Of a stretch of 25,840 nucleotides of DNA, positions 1 through 21,988 are shown piece by piece. Each line of letters begins with the position of its first letter. The first letter of the stretch is position 1. Source of the DNA: a virus; IMG/VR virus record IMGVR_UViG_3300042924_000247, positions 1 to 25,840 of that record, one strand, 5' to 3'. The position numbers and the translations under genes are program-made. The notes under the pieces are model-generated. The model saw only the letters and a program-made list of their open reading frames with translations, searched no databases and was not told the origin of the DNA.

Positions 1-240
1 CGTGAAAAGGCCGCTGATGCTAAACGCGAATCTGACGCTGAAATGAAGCGTGAGTCTCGTGGCATTAAGAAGCCCGCTAACTTTGACGCAATGCAAGAGT
101 CCATCCAAGATGCTAAAGACGCTAAAGATCGTGCAAAGATCAAGTCTATGGGCTATGCAAAAGGCGGCAAAGTAAGCTCTGCTTCTAAACGAGCTGATGG
201 CTGTGTCACTAAAGGCAAAACTCGCGGAAAGATGGTGTAA
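1..240 (+). CDS. Small Lys/Asp/Ala-rich basic protein, 5' end missing
   Basis: The frame is open from the first base of the window, so this is the 3' part of a gene whose start lies to the left; an ATG at 43 is in frame but nothing makes it the start. The visible 79 residues are highly charged, with a helical-looking Lys/Asp/Ala run, then YAKGGKV (bases 154-174) and a C-terminal motif ADGCVTKGKTRGKMV (from base 193). That C-terminal motif recurs in the proteins at 2171 and 2362. The next gene starts two bases after the stop. Function is unknown. A small basic virion or DNA-associated protein is my inference from composition and from its place in the structural operon. Confidence 0.6.
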   Translation, partial: REKAADAKRESDAEMKRESRGIKKPANFDAMQESIQDAKDAKDRAKIKSMGYAKGGKVSSASKRADGCVTKGKTRGKMV

Positions 241-242
241 CT

Positions 243-620
243 ATGATGTCCAGTCGCGGTATGGGAGCCATGCTCCCCAATAAAATGCCCAAAGGCAAGA
301 AGAAAGCCCGGCGGGACGACACTGACTTTACTCAATACAAAGAAGGCGGTGTAGTTAAAGCTGCTGGTGGTTTGGCGCAGCAAGCGGCCACAGCTATTGC
401 TATGAAGGCCAAAGGTGTAAAACCTAAGAAGATGGCAGAGGGCGGTAAGTCTACGGTTAACGCCGCAGGCAACTACACCAAGCCAGAACTACGTAAAAGA
501 ATCTTTAACGCTGTAAAAGCAGAAGCCACAGCAGGCACTGGCGCTGGGCAATGGAGCGCAAGAAAAGCACAAATGGTGGCACAGCGCTATAAAAAAGCAG
601 GCGGAGGCTACAGAGATTGA
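243..620 (+). CDS. Small basic protein with DUF5872-like C-terminal segment
   Basis: This is a 125-residue basic protein. The N-terminal half is Lys/Gly/Met-rich and carries two Gly-Gly motifs, YKEGGVV (336-356) and MAEGGKS (432-452). From about residue 65 it matches the pattern I associate with DUF5872, 'YTxPELRxRI...GxGxGQWSARKAQxxAxxYKKAGGGY', here ending KKAGGGYRD. Starts at 243 or 246 are both possible because the protein begins Met-Met. The stop overlaps the TTG start of the following gene, so the two are probably translationally coupled. DUF5872 has no established function that I can name. The assignment rests on recalled sequence patterns, not on a search. Confidence 0.6.
   Translation: MMSSRGMGAMLPNKMPKGKKKARRDDTDFTQYKEGGVVKAAGGLAQQAATAIAMKAKGVKPKKMAEGGKSTVNAAGNYTKPELRKRIFNAVKAEATAGTGAGQWSARKAQMVAQRYKKAGGGYRD
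603..607 (+). promoter_or_regulatory. Shine-Dalgarno GGAGG for the TTG-started gene at 617
   Basis: GGAGG lies 9 bases upstream of the TTG at 617, inside the end of the previous gene. It decides the start of the downstream gene. The 617 frame contains no ATG at all, and an in-frame stop at 590-592 limits how far upstream translation could begin. Confidence 0.6.
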
Positions 621-850
621 AAGCTCCTCAGAAATCTCTTAAAGATTGGGGCGACCAGAAATGGCGCACCAAGTCTGGTAAACCGTCAAGCAAGACGGGT
701 GAGAGATATTTGCCTGAAAAAGCCATTAAGTCTTTAACCTCAGCAGAATACGCAGCTACAACCAAAGCCAAGAGAGCTGGCAAAGCCTCTGGTAAACAGT
801 TTGTAGCTCAACCTAAAAATATTGCAAAGAAAACGGCAGGCTTTAGATGA
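617..850 (+). CDS. Small basic protein, second DUF5872-like segment, TTG start
   Basis: This 77-residue basic protein has no internal methionine. Its pattern 'SLKDWGDQKWRTKSGKPSS...GERYLPEKAIKSLTSAEYAATTKAKRAG..GKQFVAQP' looks like the other half of DUF5872-type proteins. From memory, in cellular genomes the two halves (this one and the QWSARKAQ segment encoded just upstream) sit in one polypeptide. The TTG start overlaps the previous stop (TTGA) and is preceded by GGAGG. The stop overlaps the ATG of the next gene (ATGA). Function is unknown; the family assignment is from recall. Confidence 0.55.
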   Translation: MKAPQKSLKDWGDQKWRTKSGKPSSKTGERYLPEKAIKSLTSAEYAATTKAKRAGKASGKQFVAQPKNIAKKTAGFR

Positions 851-1776
851 CCACTACCGGCTCAACACTTTTCAATATGGACTTCACGGAGATCGCCGAG
901 GAGGCTTGGGAGCGTGCTGGCCGAGAGATGCGTTCTGGTTATGACCTCAAGACCGCCCGGCGGTCTATGAATCTCATGACCATCGAGTGGCAGAACCGTG
1001 GCATCAACATGTGGACGATAGAGCAAGGCTTTATCACCTTAACTCCGGGTTTAAACACATACGCCCTACCACTGGACACCATAGACCTTCTGGAACATGT
1101 GATTAGAACAGGTGCAAATACAGCATCTACACAGGCTGACCTCACCATTACACGTATCAGTGTTTCTACCTATGCGACCATTCCGAACAAACTTCAACAA
1201 GCCCGTCCCATCCAAGTCTTTATTCAAAGACTTTCTGGACAGGTTAACCCGACGACTTCGTACCTCAACGGAGCCATTACAGCCACAGCGACGACGATCA
1301 CGCTTGACACGGTGGTTGGACTAGCCGGGTCGGGGTTTATCCGTCTAGAGTCAGAAGACATCTATTACACATTCATCACAGGTAACACCCTTGGTGGGGT
1401 GTTCCGTGGACAGAACAATACAACCGCTGCAACTCACGCAGATGGTATCGCTGTATTTGTGCCCCAGCTACCAGCAGTGACTGTGTGGCCTACACCAGAT
1501 AACAGCACAACATATCAGTTTGTGTACTACCGTTTACGGCGTGTACAGGACGCGGGAGCAGGCTCTGAGACTGCGGATATGAACTTCAGGTTCTTGCCCT
1601 GTGTAGTGGCTGGACTTGCGTATCACATTGCCATGAAAGTACCGGAGTTAGCACCCCGGTTAGATATGCTTAAAGGCGTGTACAACGAGCAGTTTGATTT
1701 GGCCGCTGGTGAGGATCGTGAAAAGGCTGCGGTAAGATTTGTGCCCCGTCAGATGTTCATTGGTGGGAGCTACTAA
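847..1776 (+). CDS. Head-to-tail adaptor, P22 gp4-like
   Basis: This 309-residue protein begins with a helical segment 'FTEIAEEAWERAGREMRSGYDLKTARRSMNLM' (pattern only), followed by 'NRGINMWTIEQG...LTPGLNTYALP'. That is the usual opening of podoviral adaptor or tail-accessory proteins (P22 gp4 type), which dock onto the portal and form the first ring of the neck. Residues about 135-205 look like an inserted small beta domain of the type 'TTITLDTVVGL..SGFIRLESEDIYYT...GVFRGQNNTTAATHADG'. The helical fold resumes with 'FLPCVVAGLAYHIAMKVPEL' and 'EDREKAAVRFVP'. The start is fixed by the ATGA overlap. P22 gp4 itself is much shorter (about 166 residues), and the insertion accounts for part of the difference. 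Confidence 0.65.
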   Translation: MTTTGSTLFNMDFTEIAEEAWERAGREMRSGYDLKTARRSMNLMTIEWQNRGINMWTIEQGFITLTPGLNTYALPLDTIDLLEHVIRTGANTASTQADLTITRISVSTYATIPNKLQQARPIQVFIQRLSGQVNPTTSYLNGAITATATTITLDTVVGLAGSGFIRLESEDIYYTFITGNTLGGVFRGQNNTTAATHADGIAVFVPQLPAVTVWPTPDNSTTYQFVYYRLRRVQDAGAGSETADMNFRFLPCVVAGLAYHIAMKVPELAPRLDMLKGVYNEQFDLAAGEDREKAAVRFVPRQMFIGGSY

Positions 1777-2159
1777 TGAGTAATCGTTTTGCTTCTGGCA
1801 AAATAGCGATTGCTCAATGCGACCGCTGTGGTCAGCAGTTCAGACTAAAGCAGCTTAAGACGGAGATCATTAAGCAGCGTAAATACGAGTTGTTAGTCTG
1901 TCCTGAGTGTTGGGATCCAGATCAGCCTCAGTTGATGCTTGGAACGTTCCCGGTGGATGATCCGCAGGCACTGCGTAACCCACGCAGGGACACAACATAT
2001 GTGACGTCTGGTGTGAATGCGGCTGGGAATCTATCTGGTGGTTCGAGAGACATTCAGTGGGGCTGGAACCCGGTTGGCGGGGCTAGTAATTTTGATGAGG
2101 CGTTGACTCCAAACTACTTGGTGGCAACAACATTTGTTGGTACAGTATCTATATCTTAA
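1776..2159 (+). CDS. Zinc-ribbon-like small protein between the two adaptors
   Basis: This 127-residue protein carries two CxxC pairs near the N-terminus, CDRC (residues 15-18) and CPEC about 24 residues later, separated by a basic stretch. That spacing is typical of a zinc ribbon. The remainder contains 'DDPQALRNPRRDTTYV' and a Gly/Asn/Trp-rich C-terminus without a recognisable fold. The ATG overlaps the preceding stop by one base (TAATG), so it is coupled to the adaptor gene. Position in the neck-gene cluster suggests a virion or assembly role; a DNA- or protein-binding function is inference from the cysteine pairs only. Confidence 0.6.
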   Translation: MSNRFASGKIAIAQCDRCGQQFRLKQLKTEIIKQRKYELLVCPECWDPDQPQLMLGTFPVDDPQALRNPRRDTTYVTSGVNAAGNLSGGSRDIQWGWNPVGGASNFDEALTPNYLVATTFVGTVSIS

Positions 2160-2170
2160 GGGGTTTAAAC

Positions 2171-2359
2171 ATGGCTTACACAAGATCAGCAGACGGCATT
2201 GCCAAAAAAGGCAAGACCGAAGGCAAAAATTTGGGCGATAGCGGCCCCGCAGTTGGCATCATGCGCGGCGGAAAAGGCAAAGGCAAAGGTAAAACCAATG
2301 CTGATATGTTGTCTATGGGACGTGGTTTGGCAAAGATTGCCGCACAGAAACGAGGTTAA
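2171..2359 (+). CDS. Tiny Lys/Gly-rich protein with shared KGKT motif
   Basis: This 62-residue, strongly basic protein is preceded by an AAGGGG Shine-Dalgarno. Its N-terminus has RSADGIAKKGKTEGKNL (2183-2233), which matches the C-terminal motif of the partial protein ending at 240. Then come an IMRGGKGKGKGKTNADML stretch and a final amphipathic helix. The composition resembles small nucleic-acid-binding or capsid-decorating proteins, but nothing in the sequence proves either. I do not recognise a named family. Confidence 0.6.
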   Translation: MAYTRSADGIAKKGKTEGKNLGDSGPAVGIMRGGKGKGKGKTNADMLSMGRGLAKIAAQKRG

Positions 2360-2361
2360 TC

Positions 2362-2619
2362 ATGGCTAAATTTAGCAAAAAAATGATGGGCAAAGAGGTG
2401 GGTGATGCGGCTGTGTATGCACCTCCTCACACAATGACAGGCAAGCCTGTCAAACCTTCAGCCGCGTCAGGCCCTAACCGGAGTGATGCAGGCACAGTCA
2501 ATATGTCTGTAGCTGGCATTAACCGCAGACCCCCTCCTGCGGCCAAGACAAGCGGTATCGTTACACGCGGTAATGGCGCAGCGACCAAAGGTAGAATTGC
2601 CAGAGGCCCGATGGCATGA
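2362..2619 (+). CDS. Small basic protein with C-terminal GAATKG motif
   Basis: This 85-residue protein is basic and rich in Pro, Gly and Ala. It ends in GNGAATKGRIARGPMA (2569-2619), a variant of the Lys/Gly motif seen in the proteins ending at 240 and starting at 2171. The middle, 'HTMTGKPVKPSAASGPNRSD' and 'AGINRRPPPAAKTSG', looks disordered. The stop overlaps the ATG of the second adaptor gene (ATGA). I recall similar 'RGxGAATKGxxARGPMA' endings in small environmental-phage proteins that also have no assigned role. The gene is well supported by tight packing; its function is unknown. Confidence 0.6.
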   Translation: MAKFSKKMMGKEVGDAAVYAPPHTMTGKPVKPSAASGPNRSDAGTVNMSVAGINRRPPPAAKTSGIVTRGNGAATKGRIARGPMA

Positions 2620-3461
2620 ACTACGCAGACCTCGTTAGCGCTATTCAAGCGTATACCGAGAACACGGAGACAGACTTCGTGGCGGAGATTCCTGTCTTTG
2701 TTAGGCAGGCGGAGCAGCGTATTTACAACGTGGCACAGCCTTCGTTTTTAAGAGAAAACGTAACGGGTGTCTTAACCACTGGTAATAAGTTTTTGCAGTG
2801 TCCTACGGACTTTTTGTCTGCTTACAGCCTTGCCATATTTCCAAACAACTCAACAACTGCGACGGGTACGTCTGGGCTTAAAACCATTGTGGTAGCGAGT
2901 GCCGCTGGGATCGCTGCAGGTCAGCAGGTAACGGGTACAGGCATTGGTGTCAACGCACTGGTCAGAGGCATTGTGGGAACGACCGTCACACTGACGGTTG
3001 CCAACAGCGGTACAGTGTCAGGTACAGTCATCTTCCAAGGTGACAATCTGTACCTACTTAACAAGGACGTTAACTTCATTCGTGAAGCGTATCCTTTGAC
3101 GGCCCAGCTTGGTGAGCCTAAACACTACGCCATTTTTGGCCCTCGGTCAGACAACGAGCGGGAGCTGACTTTCATCCTTGGCCCGACACCCAATGCAAAC
3201 TACACCGCAGAACTACATTATTACTATTACCCAGAGTCTATTGTGACTGCCGGTACGACTTGGCTGGGCGATAACTTTGATACAACCTTGTTGTACGGCT
3301 CTTTGGTGGAAGCTTACACTTACATGAAGGGTGAAGCAGACATGCTGAAACTGTACCAAGAACGGTACGTCCAAGCTATTGCTTTGTATAAGAACCTTGC
3401 CGACGGCAAGCAGCGCGGTGATGCTTACCGAGATGGCCAAGTAAGGGTTCCTGTCTCATGA
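2616..3461 (+). CDS. Second head-tail adaptor, SU10-adaptor-like
   Basis: This 281-residue protein opens with 'MNYADLVSAIQAYTENTET' and 'IPVFVRQAEQRIYNVAQPSF', the hallmark of the adaptor family named after podophage SU10, in which a helical N-terminus binds the portal ring. About residues 85-140 hold a Gly/Thr/Val-rich insertion ('VVASAAGIAAGQQVTGTGIG', 'GTTVTLTVANSG') that looks like a small beta-sandwich. After it come 'YAIFGPRSDNERELTFILGP' and 'TAELHYYYYPESIV', then a helical C-terminus. The ATGA overlap with the previous gene fixes the start. It could occupy a second ring of the neck with the protein at 847. The family call is by pattern recall. Confidence 0.6.
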   Translation: MNYADLVSAIQAYTENTETDFVAEIPVFVRQAEQRIYNVAQPSFLRENVTGVLTTGNKFLQCPTDFLSAYSLAIFPNNSTTATGTSGLKTIVVASAAGIAAGQQVTGTGIGVNALVRGIVGTTVTLTVANSGTVSGTVIFQGDNLYLLNKDVNFIREAYPLTAQLGEPKHYAIFGPRSDNERELTFILGPTPNANYTAELHYYYYPESIVTAGTTWLGDNFDTTLLYGSLVEAYTYMKGEADMLKLYQERYVQAIALYKNLADGKQRGDAYRDGQVRVPVS

Positions 3462-13456: not shown

Positions 13457-16400
13457 ATGGCTATTGATTATTTTGCACAACAATTTGGTGAAGATGTATT
13501 TGAAGATACAGCCCCCGCCGTATCTGATGCTGAAATTCTTGCGTATGTACAAGCTAACATAGACAACCCCGCTGCTATTGCAGCGGCTGCATCGGCGGCT
13601 GGTGTATCGATGGAAGACCTGTCTCGTGCAACAGGTTTTTCTGTGGCTGACATTGGCGGTTATTTTGGTAATGCGGGTGTAGAACCACCGCCAGCGCCCG
13701 TTTACACCCCTCCTCCAGAGCCTGTTTACACACCGCCACCACCACCAACACCTCCGCCGCCACCTCCTCCGGAGCCTGTCTATACGCCACCGCCTGCTCC
13801 AGTTAGTGAGCCTGTAGTTGATTATTACGCACAACAGTTTGAGCCTGACCGGTTTGAGCCAGTTTATACGCCTCCACCTCCTCCACCAGACCCTGTGTAC
13901 ACGCCTCCTCCGCCGCCTCCAGTAGAAGCTGCGCCTGTAGGAATTGCGTCGTTACCAGCCGCTGCACCAGTAGCCGCTCCCGCTAATAAAGTCTCTAATG
14001 CTGATATCTTAGGTTGGTTTAACGCCAATCCAGATGCGGATGCTGCATTAATTGCAAAAACAATGCAAGAGGCCAATGTTAGCCGCGATCAGATGTCTGA
14101 GGCTCTTAAAGGTTCTACGGAAGCGGCCACGCAATATTTAACAGCACAAATTCTTTCACAAGGAACGAGTGATCAATGGAAGGGTGAGGGCAAAGGTTCC
14201 GCTGAAAAGAATGCAGAAGACATGGCTAGGATCATGGCCGAAACAGGTGTTACTGACATTAACCAGTTTGGCAAGGTTACTAAAACTGTTGATGCTGCGG
14301 TGCAACCTGTTTTTGAAACGTTTGATACTGGGGGCTATGATGAGAACGGCCCCATCATTGCTCAAAAAATTGTTGGTTATACCGACCAAAATGGAAATGT
14401 AATTGACCCTAGTTTGGTTAAAACTGAGTTTGTTTCTGGCGGTGAAAGCGGAAGTGACAGCATTGCTTACGTTGCCCCCGTAGGCAAGCAAGAAGTATTT
14501 GGTAATAAACTAACTGGACAAGAAGTCGCCAGTACATACGGCGAACGTCAGACAGGTAATGCTTTTGGCGGCACGTTTGACGGCAAAGGCAACACCGGCT
14601 ATCGAGTGCAGTTTGGTGCAGATGGCACTCCTATTTTCTATACGACACAAGCTACATCTAATGATCTTGCAATTTTAATGCAAGATCTAGGGCCAATTGG
14701 TCAGATTGCTATAGCTGTAGCTACAGGTGGTTTGTCTATACCGCAACAAATTGCAGCCAACATGGCTATCAGCGTTTTAAGCGGCAACGACATTGGTGAT
14801 GCAATTAAGAATGCCGCAGTCAGTTATGTAGGCGCACAAATTCCGGGTATGGACTTTATGAAAGAAGGTGGTTCTTTCATTAAAGATCTTGGTTTTTCGG
14901 CAGACATAACCAATACCTTAACTAATTCTTTTAATAAAGCAACAGTGGCGGGTGTTACAGCCGCAGCAACGGGCAAGGATATTGGTGATGCAGTAGTTGC
15001 AGGCGCAACATCTGGCGGTTTAAACGGAGCAGTTAATGCGGTTCTAGGTAGCATTGACGGTTTTGCAGACCTGTCCGGCACTAATAAAAACCTTGTTGCC
15101 AACGCTGTAACGGGTGCGTTGTCGGGCCAGACATTAGATCAAATAGCAATTAGCACCGCCATTGCTGCTGGTAATGCCGTTGTAAATAATGCTACGGGTG
15201 GGAATGCAAACCTTACCACTCAGTTGCAAAATGCTGGCTTGGTAAATAATTCAGGCGCAGCATCATTTGCAGATGCAAATACTGCCGACGATACTGACAC
15301 TCAGATCTCCAATCAACTTACCCAATCTTTAACTTTTGACGGTTCTGGGGCAACTGACATCAATGCCGCCGCCACCGCCGCTCAAAATGCAGGATTAAAT
15401 ACATTTACGTTTGGTGGTGGCACGTACACCATTGACAACAATAACGCCGCTGCAACAATTGCTGATCTAGAAAGAATTGTTGCGGCTGACAATCTTGCCG
15501 CCACGACAACAGCTAATTTAGCTGGTGGTGAGTTTGCCGGTGTAGATGCCGCTGTGGCAGCTAACGCCGCAGCCAACAATACAGTTATTGGTAATGCAGA
15601 AGCTGACGATGTAACGCAAGCTGCCGCTTTAGCCAAAATGCGTAACCCGACCGGCACGACCTTCACCTTTGATGGTAAAACTTACACATTGGGCACATCT
15701 AATGCTGATGTAAACGCAGCATTAGCCACTACTCAAAGAGACACCGCGCTTCAAGACATTCAAAACGCACCTAATTTTAATGCCGCGTATGCCGCAGCCC
15801 GTGCAGCGCTTGGCCCTAACCAGACGTTTACATATAACGGCAAACAGTACAGCACTGCCACCGCAGCAGAGCGTCCAGATCTTACCCCTGCAGCAGATTC
15901 TGCCAGAACAATTGAAGCTTTAAACGCATCTAACCTTGCCAATAAAACTGATGCTTCAAGCACAGTGGCAGCTCAGAACGACGCCTTAGCAAAGATTGTT
16001 GCCGGTGGGCCAGATCAAAGTTCCGCCGAAAGTAAAAGATTATTTGAACAAAACAAAACATTAAGCGTTGCAAAAGGGGATCAGTATGCCAAAGATACAT
16101 TGGCTGCTCTTGAGGCAATGTTTGGCAAAGATTCAACCGCTGCCCGTCAGTTTATAGCAACTCTTACCGCAGCAAATGCTTCAACTTTAGATTTTGTTGG
16201 TGGAACTCTGTCTGGATTAGGAATAACAGGCCCAACTAATGCCATCACCAATGCCGCCAAAGATGCTCAAAATGCTGCGTATGCTTTAAATACAGAGGGT
16301 GTTAATGATGCTGTTCAAACTGTTGTTACAAATGTAACCAACGCAAAAGGATTTGTTAACAAAAGCAAAGCACTTATTGATTCTGTTATAGAAAACCCTA

Positions 16401-18538
16401 AATCTTTAAATGTAGCTGCCGTAGAAATAGTTCAAGAAGGTTTGCCTATAGCGTTAGGTTATGGACTTTATAGCAACTTAGTAAGGCTGGGCACGGCAGT
16501 CAATACAGCTAGAAAAGCAGGTATTGGTCTAGATGTATTTGTTAATGCCGCTGAATCTGCTGGCGCTGCTTGGAACAACGAAATAGAAGAGGGGGCGGAA
16601 AAAAATCTAAACTCTCAAGAAACAATACGAAACGCAAATATTGCGTTTGGCGTTGCAGGTGCAGTAACAATGGTTACTGGCGGCATAACTGATATGGCGC
16701 TGGTTAACAAAATAAGCAATGCAATAAGCAAAGTCTCTTCTAAAGTTGCTACCAATAGCGGCGTACAAGCAGCTAGTGAATTTGCCGAAGTGTTTAGCAC
16801 GGGAGTGCTTACTGCCGTTGCTACTGGGCAACCAGTCAATATTAATAAAATATTAACTCAATCAATTATTGAAACTGCTGTCAGTGGAAAAACAACGGCG
16901 GTAGTAGATGTTTCTCAGGTACAAACCGCTGTTAATGAAGCTTCTAGCACTTTTAATACAGAATTAAACAATGCAGGCATTCAGTCTGTTGACGGCAGTG
17001 GAAACTTATCTTCTTTACAAGACAAAACAACAGGCACTTTTGTTGCCCCTACAAACGTAGTTACTGGTACAACTGGTACAAATGCAGGCGATATTACACA
17101 AACCTTAACAAACTCAGGTTTGCAAAATACAGACGATCAAACAACAATAGGAGACATAACTTCAATTGTTGGTGAGACAGGCTCAACAGGCGCAACAAAT
17201 GTAAATTCTGGAACTGTGATTGCTACCGATGCAAATACAGGAACCGCAATAGTTTTAGATAACTCTGGTGCGGCTCAAATTGTTTCTTATACAGGTAATG
17301 TTGCCCCCGGCTCTACCGTTCAACTTCAGACTAATTCTTCTACGGGCGTTGTTACTGCCGCGCCAGCCACTGGAACAACTACCGGAGCCACTACAGAAAC
17401 TACTACAGGAGCAACAACTGGTGCAACCACAGGAGCAACCACTGGAACGACTACAGGAACAACGGGAACAACTGGGACTACCACAGGCGCGACTACAGGA
17501 ACAACGGGAACAACTGGCTCAACGACTGCAACAGACGCAGCGACAACCGCCAATACTGCCGCAAATACAGCCACAACAGCGGCCAATAACACTGCGGCAG
17601 ATGTCAGTACAAACAACACTACTGCGGCGGCGACCAATGCAGCCACGGCGACAGATGCCGCCACTACGGCAAATAATGCAGCTAATGTTGCGTCCAACGT
17701 AGCGGCTACCACTAATTCAGCTACTGACGCTAACGCCGCTGTAGATGCCAACACTGCGGCTAATGTGGCAAACAATGCCGCTGTAAACGCCAATGCCACA
17801 GTCAATCCAACTGTCAACCCTACGGTTAATCCTAACGTTAATCCCAACGTTAATCCCAACGTTAATCCCAACGTTAATCCCAACGTTAATCCTAATGTTA
17901 ATCCTAATGTTAATCCTAATGTTAATCCTAATGTTAATCCTAACGTTAATCCAACAGTTAACCCGACTGTTAACCCTACAGTTAATCCAACCGTAAACCC
18001 AACTGTTAATCCCAACATTAACACTAAGATTAATACAGATGTACCTAATGTTTTAACCGTTGGCGGAACCTCTATTCCCGGGACGTATGTAGAACCGCCA
18101 GTCATTCCTACAACTCCTATAACACCAGATGTAACAACGCCGGTTACACCTGTCACGCCCGTTACGCCCGTTACTCCGCCAACTAAACAGCCGCCTAAAA
18201 AGCCAACTAAAAAGCCGACCCTAGACCAGCCGCAGATGCCACAACAAGGTGGTGGCATTGCAGAGCTTGCACCGCTGGCTAATGTGTTCTATTACGGCAA
18301 AGAGTTTGGCGGTCAGAAACAACAACTGTCTCCCACCGGAGAGTTAATGATGGCTCCGTATCAGGAGCTAAGTGTCACTAAAGCTGGCGCAGAAGCGCCC
18401 GTGCAAGCTATGCCTGTTGCACAAGCACCCAAAGAAGACGAAAATGACATATCTGCGTTGATACAGCAAATCATGGCATCGAGCGGAAACAACATGACGC
18501 AAGACGAACTTATGCAAATTATTCAATCAAGGGGCTAA
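13457..18538 (+). CDS. Giant low-complexity protein, putative DNA-ejection/internal virion protein
   Basis: This is a 1693-residue protein. In order it has [13 protein letters not shown] (4-16), a 51-residue helical module (24-74), and a proline-rich stretch with PVYTPPP repeats (~76-160) that contains a second [13 protein letters not shown] (122-134). A second helical module (181-231), an Ala/Gly-rich hydrophobic region (~400-540) and three beta-hairpin motifs '[11 protein letters not shown]' (649-659, 735-745, 790-800) follow. Another hydrophobic region (~985-1080) precedes Thr/Gly- and Ala/Asn-rich tracts, the xVNP array (1448-1519), PVTP repeats and a helical C-terminus. Size, hydrophobic patches and place before three similar genes suggest a protein released into the cell envelope during DNA entry. 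That is inference; no enzymatic domain is seen. Confidence 0.5.
13526..13678 (+). repeat. 51-codon helical module, copy 1
   Basis: This encodes residues 24-74 of the giant protein, beginning [11 protein letters not shown] and containing [20 protein letters not shown]. It is related to the units at 13997-14149 and 18870-19022. Confidence 0.5.
13997..14149 (+). repeat. 51-codon helical module, copy 2
   Basis: This encodes residues 181-231 of the giant protein, beginning [13 protein letters not shown] and containing [14 protein letters not shown]. It aligns without gaps to copy 1 and copy 3 by eye. Confidence 0.5.
17371..17523 (+). repeat. Thr/Gly/Ala low-complexity coding repeats (GATT/GTT)
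   Basis: Short degenerate units encode GATT, GTTT and GTTG blocks inside the giant protein. Synonymous variation is high, so there is no exact DNA unit. An Ala/Asn/Thr-rich tract follows. It probably forms an extended disordered linker. Confidence 0.6.
17798..18037 (+). repeat. 12-bp coding tandem array, [TN]-V-N-P
   Basis: Eighteen in-frame 12-bp units (17798-18013) encode three TVNP, ten NVNP and five TVNP, and two degenerate units (NINT, KINT) follow. Four consecutive units are identical, aacgttaatccc (17834-17881), and another four are identical, aatgttaatcct (17894-17941). The flanking TVNP units vary at synonymous sites. The central block has therefore been homogenised or expanded recently. 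Confidence 0.85.
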
Positions 18539-18539
18539 T

Positions 18540-19469
18540 ATGGGTGATGACTACGACTTTTTTGCCGATCCTAGAAATGATCCCTTTTACTACAATGACT
18601 TAGGCACGTCTCCATCTAATGCTGACATTTTGTCTAGTATTAGTTACGACCCGGGCCTTTTCGATTCCCTCAAAGGACTACTGTCTGGCAAATCTGGCAC
18701 TGCGGCGCAATTAGCTAGTGTGGGTGGTATTGGGGCTTTGCTCAACAGTATTGGTGGCGGTGGCGGTGGTGGTTTTGCTGGCTATAGGGGCAGTATCCCT
18801 AAGTACACAGCATCACGCACGCAGTACGCCCCTCCGGTTAGCACAGTCAACCGTGGCCCTGCACCGTCCAATGAAGCGGTATTGGACTATCTGCAACGTC
18901 CCGGTTTAAACGATGCAATGATTGCGCGTTCTATGAATGAATACGGTGTTGCACCGCAGCAAATTGCTGACGTAACCAAAGCTCCTCTAGCGGATATACA
19001 AGCTCGCTATCAGGCGGCCATGGGGCCAAATGCAGGCATTGCCCGCCGTCCCGGCTCTGGTGGTGTGACGTACTTCTCTCCTATGGTTTACACACCACAA
19101 GCCGCCGCTCCTGCAACTCCTGCAACCCCAGCCACTGCCGCTACGCCTGCTGTAGTTGAGCCAGAAAAATTTGCCGATGGCGGTATAGCTAGTTTAGGAG
19201 GGTACTCAGATGGTGGACAATTACTCCGTGGCCCCGGTGATGGTGTGTCTGATGACATCCCTGCAACCATTGGTGGCAAGCAACCCGCACGTCTTGCTGA
19301 TGGCGAGTTTGTTGTGCCTGCTCGTATTGTTTCTGAACTGGGTAATGGATCAACAGAGGCGGGGGCCAGAAAGCTCTACGCCATGATGGATCGCATTAAA
19401 AAAGCCCGCAGTAAGAGTCTGAAGAACATCGCAGCCAATAGTAAGGCTGATAAATATTTACCCGCATAA
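18540..19469 (+). CDS. Putative ejection/virion protein with GDGxSD-IPA module
   Basis: This is a 309-residue protein. An acidic aromatic N-terminus is followed by SNADIL, a glycine-rich hydrophobic patch (~55-80), and a 51-residue helical module (111-161, 18870-19022) that is homologous to two modules in the giant protein upstream. An Ala/Thr/Pro linker leads to a C-terminal region with FADGGIA (19170-19190), 'GPGDGVSDDIPATIGGKQ' and 'ARLADGEFVVPARIVSELG'. The GxGxGxSDxIPA...LxDGEFVV pattern is widespread at the ends of phage tape-measure and injection-type proteins. The start is one base after the previous stop. It is a likely internal virion or ejection protein; its biochemical role is unknown. 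Confidence 0.55.
   Translation: MGDDYDFFADPRNDPFYYNDLGTSPSNADILSSISYDPGLFDSLKGLLSGKSGTAAQLASVGGIGALLNSIGGGGGGGFAGYRGSIPKYTASRTQYAPPVSTVNRGPAPSNEAVLDYLQRPGLNDAMIARSMNEYGVAPQQIADVTKAPLADIQARYQAAMGPNAGIARRPGSGGVTYFSPMVYTPQAAAPATPATPATAATPAVVEPEKFADGGIASLGGYSDGGQLLRGPGDGVSDDIPATIGGKQPARLADGEFVVPARIVSELGNGSTEAGARKLYAMMDRIKKARSKSLKNIAANSKADKYLPA
18870..19022 (+). repeat. 51-codon helical module, copy 3
   Basis: This encodes residues 111-161 of the 309-residue protein, beginning NEAVLDYLQRPG and containing NEYGVAPQQIADVT and LADIQARYQAAM. It is related to the two modules in the upstream giant gene, so the module is shared between neighbouring genes. Confidence 0.5.
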
Positions 19470-20338: not shown

Positions 20339-21988
20339 ATGAATTTAATTCAAGTACAGGAGCATCTTAAAGACATGCCCATGAGGAATGTCTTGGAGTA
20401 TGCCAACGGTAAAAGCGCTCAAGTGCCCCCTTATTTGGCTTTGGGTGAGTTAAACCGCCGAAAGCAGATGGAGCAGTCTGCCAAGGCCCCTCAAGCGCCG
20501 GACGGTACAGTCAAGGAACGCTTAGAGAAAGAGTTAACCGGACAGGCTACCGACCTCATGCAGGCCGGTGCAGCCCGTCAGGCTCAGTCCAATGAAGCGA
20601 TGCAGCAAGGCATCATGGCTCAACCACAGCCAGTGCCTGAAGGTACACCTCAACCCCCCCAGCTAGAGGAAGAGATGCCTCAAATGGCTGGCGGGGGATT
20701 GACGGCCTTGCCTGTAAATGACATGTTTAAATTTGCCGAAGGCGGCGGTATTGTTGCTTTTAGCAATGGTGATGCGGTTGTCGATGAGTTTAGTGCTGCT
20801 AATCCAGAATTTTATAATGCACAGCTAGAACAAAATGTTTTAAAAAATGCAGAGAGACAACGTTTAAAAGACCAAAAGGAATTGGTAGACAAGATTAAAT
20901 TCTTAGAAACTGCCGCGCCGGAAGTGGCTGAACGTCTCAAAAGAGAAAGAGCGTCTGAATTACCGCAACCGGCGGTTGCTCCAGCAAAGCAAGGCATTGC
21001 ATACGACCCCGCTACAGCAACTCGCCGTAGCGACTTTGCAGGGGCAGCTCCGATGCCCCCAATGCCTGCAATGGGTGTACCCGGTGGTATTTCTTCAGCG
21101 ATGCCAAAACCCCCCACGATCACAGCACCTGATCCAGATGCGTATGACAAGAAACTTGCTGCGTTTAAACAAGCCAATCCCGGATTGGCTGGCAGCGAGT
21201 TCCAAGCGTTGATTGAGAAATTGTCTAAACAAGACGAAGCCGACCGCGCTAGGTTTGCAGCGCAAGAAAAAGGCCGCGCTCAGTCTGATTTCTTCAGGTC
21301 TTTGATTGATGCGGGTGAGGCCACCCGTGGTCAAAAGGGCATTGGTGCTTTGTTTGCAGGGTTTGGTCGCTCCTCTGGAGCCGCTCAAGTTGCAGCGGAT
21401 GAGCGTGAAAACGCTCAGATGAAGATACGCAGAGAGCAAGACTTAGGCATGGCCAAGATCCGTGCTGAGTTAGAGGCCGCCCGCCGGGCAGAGGCCCGTG
21501 GCGACTTTGAAGCTGCGTTTAAACATAGACAAGACGCAGAAAAAATTGGCATGGAGCTTCAGCAGAAAGAATTTGCCAATCAAGTGGAGCTTACCAAGCT
21601 TAAACAGCAAGATCGTGCCAGTAACATTCAGGCCGCTAATGTTAATCGGGATCCTGAAGTTATTCGAATTGCCAAATATCTCCAATCTACAGGCGTATCT
21701 GTGCCTGAATCATTGGAGCGTGCCCCTAGCTTGGCGAGCGGCGCTCAATATCTAACGGCAGATGTGCGCCAACAAAAGGCCATAGCCGACGCATATGAGG
21801 TCGAACGTCCTCATGATCCTAAGATGATCCAATACATGGCTAAAACGCCTGAAGAACGACAGAAAATGTTAAAGGAAAACCAAGAAGCATATGATCGGGT
21901 TCGCGCTCGTTTTGGATTAGGCCCTCAAGGCCAGCAAACTGATCCTAACGCTCCAACTCCCGGTTTTGGTCAAGCACGTCCTAAGTAA
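20339..21988 (+). CDS. Putative internal virion/ejection protein with long coiled coil
   Basis: This 549-residue protein is preceded by AAGGA. N-terminal 'LKDMPMRNVLEYANGKSAQV' and 'PPYLALGELNRRKQMEQS' form a helical module. A Gln/Pro-rich linker follows, then a glycine motif region (MAGGGLTAL; FAEGGGI at 20732-20752), a Pro-rich stretch, and a long charged coiled coil (about residues 290-430, rich in Arg/Glu/Ala: 'AEKGRAQSD'-like segments replaced by 'EARGDFEAAFKHRQDAEKI'). The C-terminus is polar with 'YMAKTPEERQKMLKENQEAY'. No enzyme signature is visible. Size, coiled coil and position fit P22-type ejection proteins, but homology is not shown. Confidence 0.5.
   Translation: MNLIQVQEHLKDMPMRNVLEYANGKSAQVPPYLALGELNRRKQMEQSAKAPQAPDGTVKERLEKELTGQATDLMQAGAARQAQSNEAMQQGIMAQPQPVPEGTPQPPQLEEEMPQMAGGGLTALPVNDMFKFAEGGGIVAFSNGDAVVDEFSAANPEFYNAQLEQNVLKNAERQRLKDQKELVDKIKFLETAAPEVAERLKRERASELPQPAVAPAKQGIAYDPATATRRSDFAGAAPMPPMPAMGVPGGISSAMPKPPTITAPDPDAYDKKLAAFKQANPGLAGSEFQALIEKLSKQDEADRARFAAQEKGRAQSDFFRSLIDAGEATRGQKGIGALFAGFGRSSGAAQVAADERENAQMKIRREQDLGMAKIRAELEAARRAEARGDFEAAFKHRQDAEKIGMELQQKEFANQVELTKLKQQDRASNIQAANVNRDPEVIRIAKYLQSTGVSVPESLERAPSLASGAQYLTADVRQQKAIADAYEVERPHDPKMIQYMAKTPEERQKMLKENQEAYDRVRARFGLGPQGQQTDPNAPTPGFGQARPK

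What the first reader, a model, noticed from the sequence alone, without database searches (positions are those of the whole stretch)
190..2619. Shared short Lys/Gly tag in three separate tiny proteins
Three proteins carry the same short motif: ADGCVTKGKTRGKMV at the end of the partial protein (to base 240), ADGIAKKGKTEGKNL near the start of the protein at 2171, and GNGAATKGRIARGPMA at the end of the protein at 2362. The consensus is about [DN]-G-x-[AV]-x-K-G-[KR]-[TI]-x-x-G. The carriers are otherwise dissimilar and flank the first adaptor gene. A motif kept at a terminus of several unrelated small basic proteins suggests a docking or packaging tag, or DNA binding, rather than a fold. I recall similar endings in environmental-phage hypotheticals but no assigned role.
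Basis: partly seen in the sequence, partly recalled or inferred. Interest (0 to 1): 0.65.

Follow-up and report, generated by a model that had tools for sequence, protein, structure and literature searches.

The report
Shared tail tag on phage head proteins
Many otherwise unrelated small proteins in one large group of aquatic phages end in the same short basic peptide, always encoded just after the capsid gene, which suggests a common docking tag that brings accessory proteins to one partner in the virus head.

Summary
The motif at window 190-240 is a C-terminal tag: Gly-Gly linker, then about 18 residues, ..SSASxRADG[IC]AxxGKT[KR]G[KR][MFI][VC]-stop. The same motif opens the 62-aa protein at 2171. 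The third segment (end of the 2362 protein) is a separate, family-specific ending that resembles the tag only weakly. A 99.85% identical contig shows four tagged proteins in this phage, just upstream of the adaptor. In IMG/VR the tag ends 336 proteins from 181 loci, in over 100 BLAST clusters with no detectable similarity apart from the tag. With loci chosen by the capsid gene instead, 30 of 31 carry tags, all 1.2-5.9 kb downstream of it. Synonymous sites vary freely, so selection is on the peptide. Tags in one genome resemble each other, and a single cysteine sits at one of two positions, almost never both (p = 4e-17). The tag is in no Pfam, PHROG or PDB entry. Best reading: a C-terminal docking peptide recruiting disordered accessory proteins to one head partner, comparable to encapsulin targeting peptides or T4 capsid-targeting sequences. 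Partner and location are untested.

The parts
1..240 (+). 3' part (79 aa) of a tagged protein, complete length 139 aa in L125; two predicted helices, rest disordered
   Evidence: 23 of 23 distinct homologues carry the C-terminal tag
148..237 (+). C-terminal tag MGYAKGGKVSSASKRADGCVTKGKTRGKMV: GG linker plus RADG....GKTRG core, stop 3 residues after the last G
243..620 (+). 125-aa basic protein with a [FY]xxGG motif, phrog_17747 (unknown function); standard neighbour of the tagged genes
617..850 (+). 77-aa basic protein, phrog_14910 (unknown function); standard neighbour
847..1776 (+). first SU10-type adaptor (head-tail connector) protein
   Evidence: Pfam PF24175, 2.4e-7
1776..2159 (+). 127-aa putative zinc-ribbon protein between the adaptor and the N-terminal tag protein
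   Evidence: weak Pfam zinc-ribbon hits; conserved synteny
2171..2359 (+). 62-aa protein with the tag motif at its N-terminus (ADGIAKKGKTEG at 2189-2224)
2362..2619 (+). 85-aa protein whose conserved C-terminus TRGNGAATKGRIARGPMA (about 2563-2616) resembles the tag only weakly
2616..3461 (+). second SU10-type adaptor protein
   Evidence: Pfam PF24175, 5.5e-20

Best explanation
The tag is a short linear docking motif on the end of a flexible Gly-Gly linker. It recruits several unrelated, mostly disordered accessory proteins to one common partner during head assembly of a large lineage of aquatic short-tailed phages with a Mu gpT-like (HK97-type) capsid protein. Shown: the shared peptide, its terminal position, the unrelated bodies, selection at protein level, the single-cysteine rule, and the fixed place between the capsid and adaptor genes. 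Inferred: that the peptide is bound by a single partner (within-genome co-variation suggests it), that the partner is a head component (capsid interior, acidic scaffold or portal/adaptor vertex), and that tagged proteins end up in the virion, possibly to be ejected with the DNA.
For: Terminal: of 336 C-terminal carriers in 181 loci most end exactly 3 residues after the last motif Gly, and most of the rest carry a 10-13 residue extension, often ending in Cys. Unrelated bodies: 123 BLAST clusters; in 90 representatives only the start Met, the GG linker and the tag are invariant or nearly so; only a few have a confident family match beyond the tag. Modular: DUF6321 proteins end ..RAWNC without a tag in 129 cases and have a tag at the end in 11. 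Location: 30 of 31 capsid-selected loci with at least 4 kb downstream have tags, 113 of 113 hits downstream on the same strand, none upstream; one cluster per 60-kb record. Lineage: 118 of 120 tag contigs carry its head-gene markers. Protein-level selection: third bases near background use. Within-genome likeness between families: z = 3.9 overall, z = 5.0 at the two residues before GKT, third bases only z = 2.1. One Cys: 109 at position 3, 65 at the C-terminus, 2 both, 81 neither; 11 families contain both forms, one-per-family median p = 1.5e-5. Disorder: 84% of bodies against 20% of other proteins; AlphaFold gives the tag no secondary structure, pLDDT about 52-55. One widespread carrier module (SKKQ..FM..) matches PHROGs annotated as virion structural proteins.
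Against: No virion proteomics, binding assay or complex model was available. Capsid relatives with about 55-66% identity (HTVC023P, HTVC027P, CRP-902, DSL-LC04) showed no tag in the region read, so the tag is not needed for this capsid type. The motif also occurs at one N-terminus and with C-terminal extensions, so a free C-terminus is not required. The net charge (about +4.5) also fits nucleic-acid binding. Third-base likeness within genomes (z = 2.1) leaves room for some recombination.
Confidence: 0.55

Rival explanations
1. The tag is a basic nucleic-acid-binding tail (RG/KG-rich) that binds packaged DNA or RNA, so tagged proteins act as condensing proteins or ride in with the genome.
For: Mean net charge about +4.5 over 18 residues; disordered basic bodies; many K/R swaps are tolerated.
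Against: D, G, G, T, G and the register are fixed while charge could be kept in many other ways; the single-cysteine rule and within-genome matching of the two residues before GKT are not expected of non-specific binding.
Confidence: 0.2
2. The tag handles the fate of the protein rather than docking in the head: a recognition signal for a host or phage protease, chaperone (these phages encode a GroES-like co-chaperonin upstream) or secretion route.
For: C-terminal position, short linear motif, unrelated carriers; GroES genes near the scaffold gene in relatives.
Against: GroES is also present in the tagless relatives; carriers are confined to the capsid-adaptor interval, whereas a general degradation or folding signal could be anywhere in the genome.
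Confidence: 0.1
3. The tag spreads as a DNA cassette (duplication or recombination between copies) and has little protein function.
For: 2-6 copies per genome in neighbouring genes; slight excess of third-base identity within genomes, z = 2.1.
Against: Third bases are near background use and as different within a genome as between genomes (0.38 against 0.37), while D, G, G, T, G were invariant among the collected tags and K nearly so; Cys moves between two positions within families.
Confidence: 0.05
4. Chance likeness of Lys/Gly-rich, low-complexity proteins.
For: Bodies are K/G-rich; the third segment probably is such a look-alike.
Against: 0 of 100 shuffles give two matches where the window has two; hits lie in one lineage and one locus.
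Confidence: 0.02

Closest known systems
Encapsulin targeting (cargo-loading) peptides
   Same: Short peptide, usually at the C-terminus and in one cargo type at the N-terminus, shared by unrelated proteins encoded beside an HK97-fold shell gene (PMC8346489, read).
   Different: No TVGSL-like sequence; a phage with a DNA-filled head; several different cargo candidates per genome; no binding shown; extra single-cysteine rule.
T4 capsid-targeting sequences (CTS) of internal proteins IPI-III
   Same: Short sequence shared by divergent small head proteins, seen as an evolutionary way to load various proteins into the capsid (PMC9026906, read).
   Different: CTS is N-terminal and removed by the prohead protease gp21; this tag is mostly C-terminal, not related in sequence, and no S78 prohead protease was found in 13 records.
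Planktothrix phage Pag-Yong1 protein UMO75986.1 (isolate)
   Same: 308-aa protein between capsid and adaptor ending YASGGMIGRDGCAKRGRTKGRFI, a divergent tag.
   Different: Only one tagged protein in the region read; annotated hypothetical, no role assigned.
P-loop (Walker A, GxxxxGK[ST])
   Same: DGxxxxGKT fits the consensus letter for letter.
   Different: No strand before or helix after it, only about 5 residues to the end of the protein, no predicted fold, no Pfam hit.

Membership tests
T4-type capsid-targeting sequence | N-terminal position | tested here: not met
   Most carriers are C-terminal; one family (2171) is N-terminal
T4-type capsid-targeting sequence | Removed by a prohead protease | tested here: inconclusive
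   No Peptidase_S78 in 13 records, controls rang; Peptidase_S77 absent too but its control did not ring
T4-type capsid-targeting sequence | Directs the protein into the head | not testable with these tools
   Needs virion proteomics or reporter loading
Encapsulin targeting peptide | Short terminal peptide shared by unrelated proteins encoded beside an HK97-fold shell gene | tested here: met
   the capsid protein hits PF25209 and Mu gpT
Encapsulin targeting peptide | TVGSL-like consensus sequence | tested here: not met
   Tag consensus RADG[IC]AxxGKT[KR]G
Encapsulin targeting peptide | Binds the inner face of the shell | not testable with these tools
   No complex prediction or binding assay on hand
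P-loop NTPase | GxxxxGK[ST] between a strand and a helix | tested here: not met
   Sequence letters fit but no strand or helix is predicted and the protein ends; no Pfam hit
Described protein family (Pfam, PHROGs, PDB) | Profile match to the tag | tested here: not met

The most novel reading that the evidence does not exclude
A phage counterpart of the encapsulin cargo system: a modular one-cysteine peptide that loads up to six different accessory proteins per genome into the head, with the single thiol used for covalent or redox-controlled anchoring, and with the tag co-evolving with one genome-specific receptor.
Probability: 0.15. Interest if true: 0.82.

Novelty: new variant of a known kind. 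Interest (0 to 1): 0.62.

Why it matters
If the docking reading holds, a short peptide would predict which of the many uncharacterised genes of a very common aquatic phage lineage act in or on the virion head, and would give a natural, modular loading tag (with a sharp one-cysteine rule) that can be tested on a cultured phage. It also shows how phages may add new head-associated proteins: by attaching a tag rather than by evolving a new fold.

Tried and rejected
tblastn of the first protein, of a 28-aa tag consensus and of the 62-aa protein against GenBank phages found nothing; the divergent tag of Pag-Yong1 came only through its capsid gene. Tag members or profile against PHROGs, Pfam and PDB: nothing of note. 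Tag strings in open papers: none; papers on Pag-Yong1 or its relatives: none relevant; papers on a shared C-terminal motif: none relevant among those listed. GTDB genomes: 25 pattern hits; four loci are tagged loci of the same lineage (L203, L205, L207, L219), L222 is a tag at the edge of an unrelated frame and probably a chimeric assembly, and the remaining 20 show no lineage marker and are taken as chance. Concerted evolution by recombination: rejected as the main cause on third-base evidence. Walker A motif: rejected on context. Prohead protease S77 search: control did not ring, so no conclusion.

Full report
Observation. The three segments are at the stated places. The pattern ADGxxxKGKT occurs exactly twice in the window, at 193 and 2189, and never in 100 shuffles. 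The two copies align with P = 7.6e-10 as profiles. The third segment, the end of the 2362 protein, is a different conserved ending, RG[TAN]G[AC]ATKGxxxRGPMA, kept in its own family and never the tag in 139 homologues; it resembles the tag only weakly (profile P = 0.004, probability 8.7%; about 0.5% of controls score as high).

The phage. The window is a 25.8-kb IMG/VR record. Contig L125 is 99.85% identical over 7.36 kb and reaches 2.8 kb further upstream. There, four proteins of 110, 136, 319 and 139 aa carry the tag at or near the C-terminus, the last being the complete form of the window's partial protein. Long relatives of about 60 kb show the order terminase, portal, GroES, scaffold-like protein, two proteins, capsid, cement-like proteins, DUF6321, tagged genes, phrog_17747, phrog_14910, adaptor 1, zinc ribbon, the 62-aa protein, the 2362 protein, adaptor 2. 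Function names other than capsid (Pfam Phage_capsid_4 and Mu gpT) and the adaptors (Pfam SU10_adaptor) rest partly on position or on annotation of isolates.

The tag. The consensus is [MFY]xxGG-x(2-6)-SASxRADG[IC]A-x-[KR]-GKT-[KR]-G-[KR]-[MFI]-[VCIL]-stop. In the first set ADG and GKT were fixed by the DNA pattern, so their invariance there is by construction. In loci chosen by the 62-aa protein, a relaxed pattern still gave almost only C-terminal tags besides that protein's own copy. Loci chosen by capsid similarity, searched with a profile, gave divergent forms such as RGDGACMKGHTKGRMV, IDGAAIKGKTKGRMC and RGDGICRKGKTKGRMV, all at the very end. What is kept is D-G-x(4)-G-[KRH]-T-[KR]-G, some 3 residues before the stop, or 10-13 residues before it with an extension that often ends in Cys.

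Unrelated carriers. Removing the tag leaves 123 BLAST clusters from 324 bodies (single linkage at other cut-offs gives 64 to 117 for the 261-tag subset used later). In 90 representatives only the GG and the tag are invariant or nearly so, apart from the start Met. Few have any family match. 84% of bodies are predicted disordered by a charge-hydropathy rule against 20% of other proteins. An AlphaFold model of the window family (13 sequences, mean pLDDT 55) shows two helices and an unstructured tag; it is a low-confidence model and is used only for that.

Place and lineage. In 30 long records the tags lie essentially in one cluster each. Of 31 capsid-selected loci with at least 4 kb downstream, 30 have tags; all 113 hits are 1.2-5.9 kb downstream on the same strand. 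118 of 120 pattern-selected contigs carry markers of the same head locus; the other two are 1-kb excerpts of long records in the set. On a capsid tree the multi-tag clade is well supported (100/99; 31 of 34 tagged), sister clades have sporadic, usually single tags, and the DSL-LC04-like clade has 1 of 30. A cultured member of the sister clade, Planktothrix phage Pag-Yong1, has one divergent tag. The tag therefore looks like an old single feature that multiplied in one clade, with losses elsewhere; that history is inference.

Selection on the peptide. Third bases at conserved Gly, Thr and Ala codons are near background use, and as different within a genome as between genomes (0.38 against 0.37). 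Tags from different families in one genome are nevertheless more alike in amino acids than expected (z = 3.9), most of all at the two residues before GKT (QR, TK, VK; z = 5.0), while third bases show only z = 2.1. This fits matching to a common partner; shared ancestry of neighbouring genomes and some recombination are not fully excluded.

One cysteine. Position 3 (I or C) and the C-terminal residue (V, C, I, L) exclude each other as cysteines: 109, 65, 2 both, 81 neither, p = 4e-17. With one tag per family the median p is 1.5e-5, and 11 families contain both forms, so the cysteine has moved within families. It is usually the only cysteine of the protein. Two cysteines are avoided and one is favoured, but 81 of 257 have none, so it is not essential. 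A disulfide, metal or simply a hydrophobic role is open. The rows are not fully independent, so the p-values are guides.

Mechanism. A fixed short peptide after a Gly-Gly linker on many unrelated disordered proteins, coded in one head-gene locus, is best read as a docking motif for one head partner. Encapsulin targeting peptides (PMC8346489) and T4 capsid-targeting sequences (PMC9026906) are working parallels, not shown relatives: the encapsulin consensus and the N-terminal position of CTS were tested and not met. The scaffold-like protein is acidic and would suit a basic tag, as a guess. Presence in virions, the partner and the use of the cysteine are untested.

Noticed in passing
window 243-620, 18540-19469, 20339-21988: A second recurring short motif, [FYM]xxGG (as in QYKEGG, KFADGG, KFAEGGG), appears in many proteins of these phages, also at carrier N-termini (MKKYADGG, MKRRFYEDGG).
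   Followed up: no
window 2362-2619; MN698239.1 (HTVC023P) 32480-32863 in L327: The ending RGxG[AC]A[TV][KR]G is a conserved family C-terminus of its own and has a likely relative (RGGGAAVRGMGFKGVF) in the Pelagibacter phage HTVC023P, in which no tag was seen.
   Followed up: partly
L240 13348-13797 and cluster 1 of the carriers: The N-terminal SKKQ..FMxAVANNPxFAKKVGV module is about 60% identical over 43 aa to small hypothetical proteins of phiKZ-like jumbo phages and lies at the start of PHROG virion structural proteins.
   Followed up: partly
L230 17892-18158 (G009:C1:57892-58158), L043: Small proteins in the tagged locus contain DLTGDGKxTxADxLKGRG near the start, which looks like a dockerin or EF-hand calcium loop.
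   Followed up: no
L240 11761-12015 (PF19846, DUF6321): DUF6321 proteins end in a conserved ..RAWNC or ..RWKC; in the matched PHROG profiles this domain lies at or next to the C-terminus of longer proteins.
   Followed up: partly
window 13457-18538: 1693-aa protein with a long VNPNVNP / VTP repeat region.
   Followed up: no
L222 162-229: A tag fused in frame to an acyltransferase-like frame at the end of a Patulibacter MAG contig, probably a chimeric assembly.
   Followed up: partly
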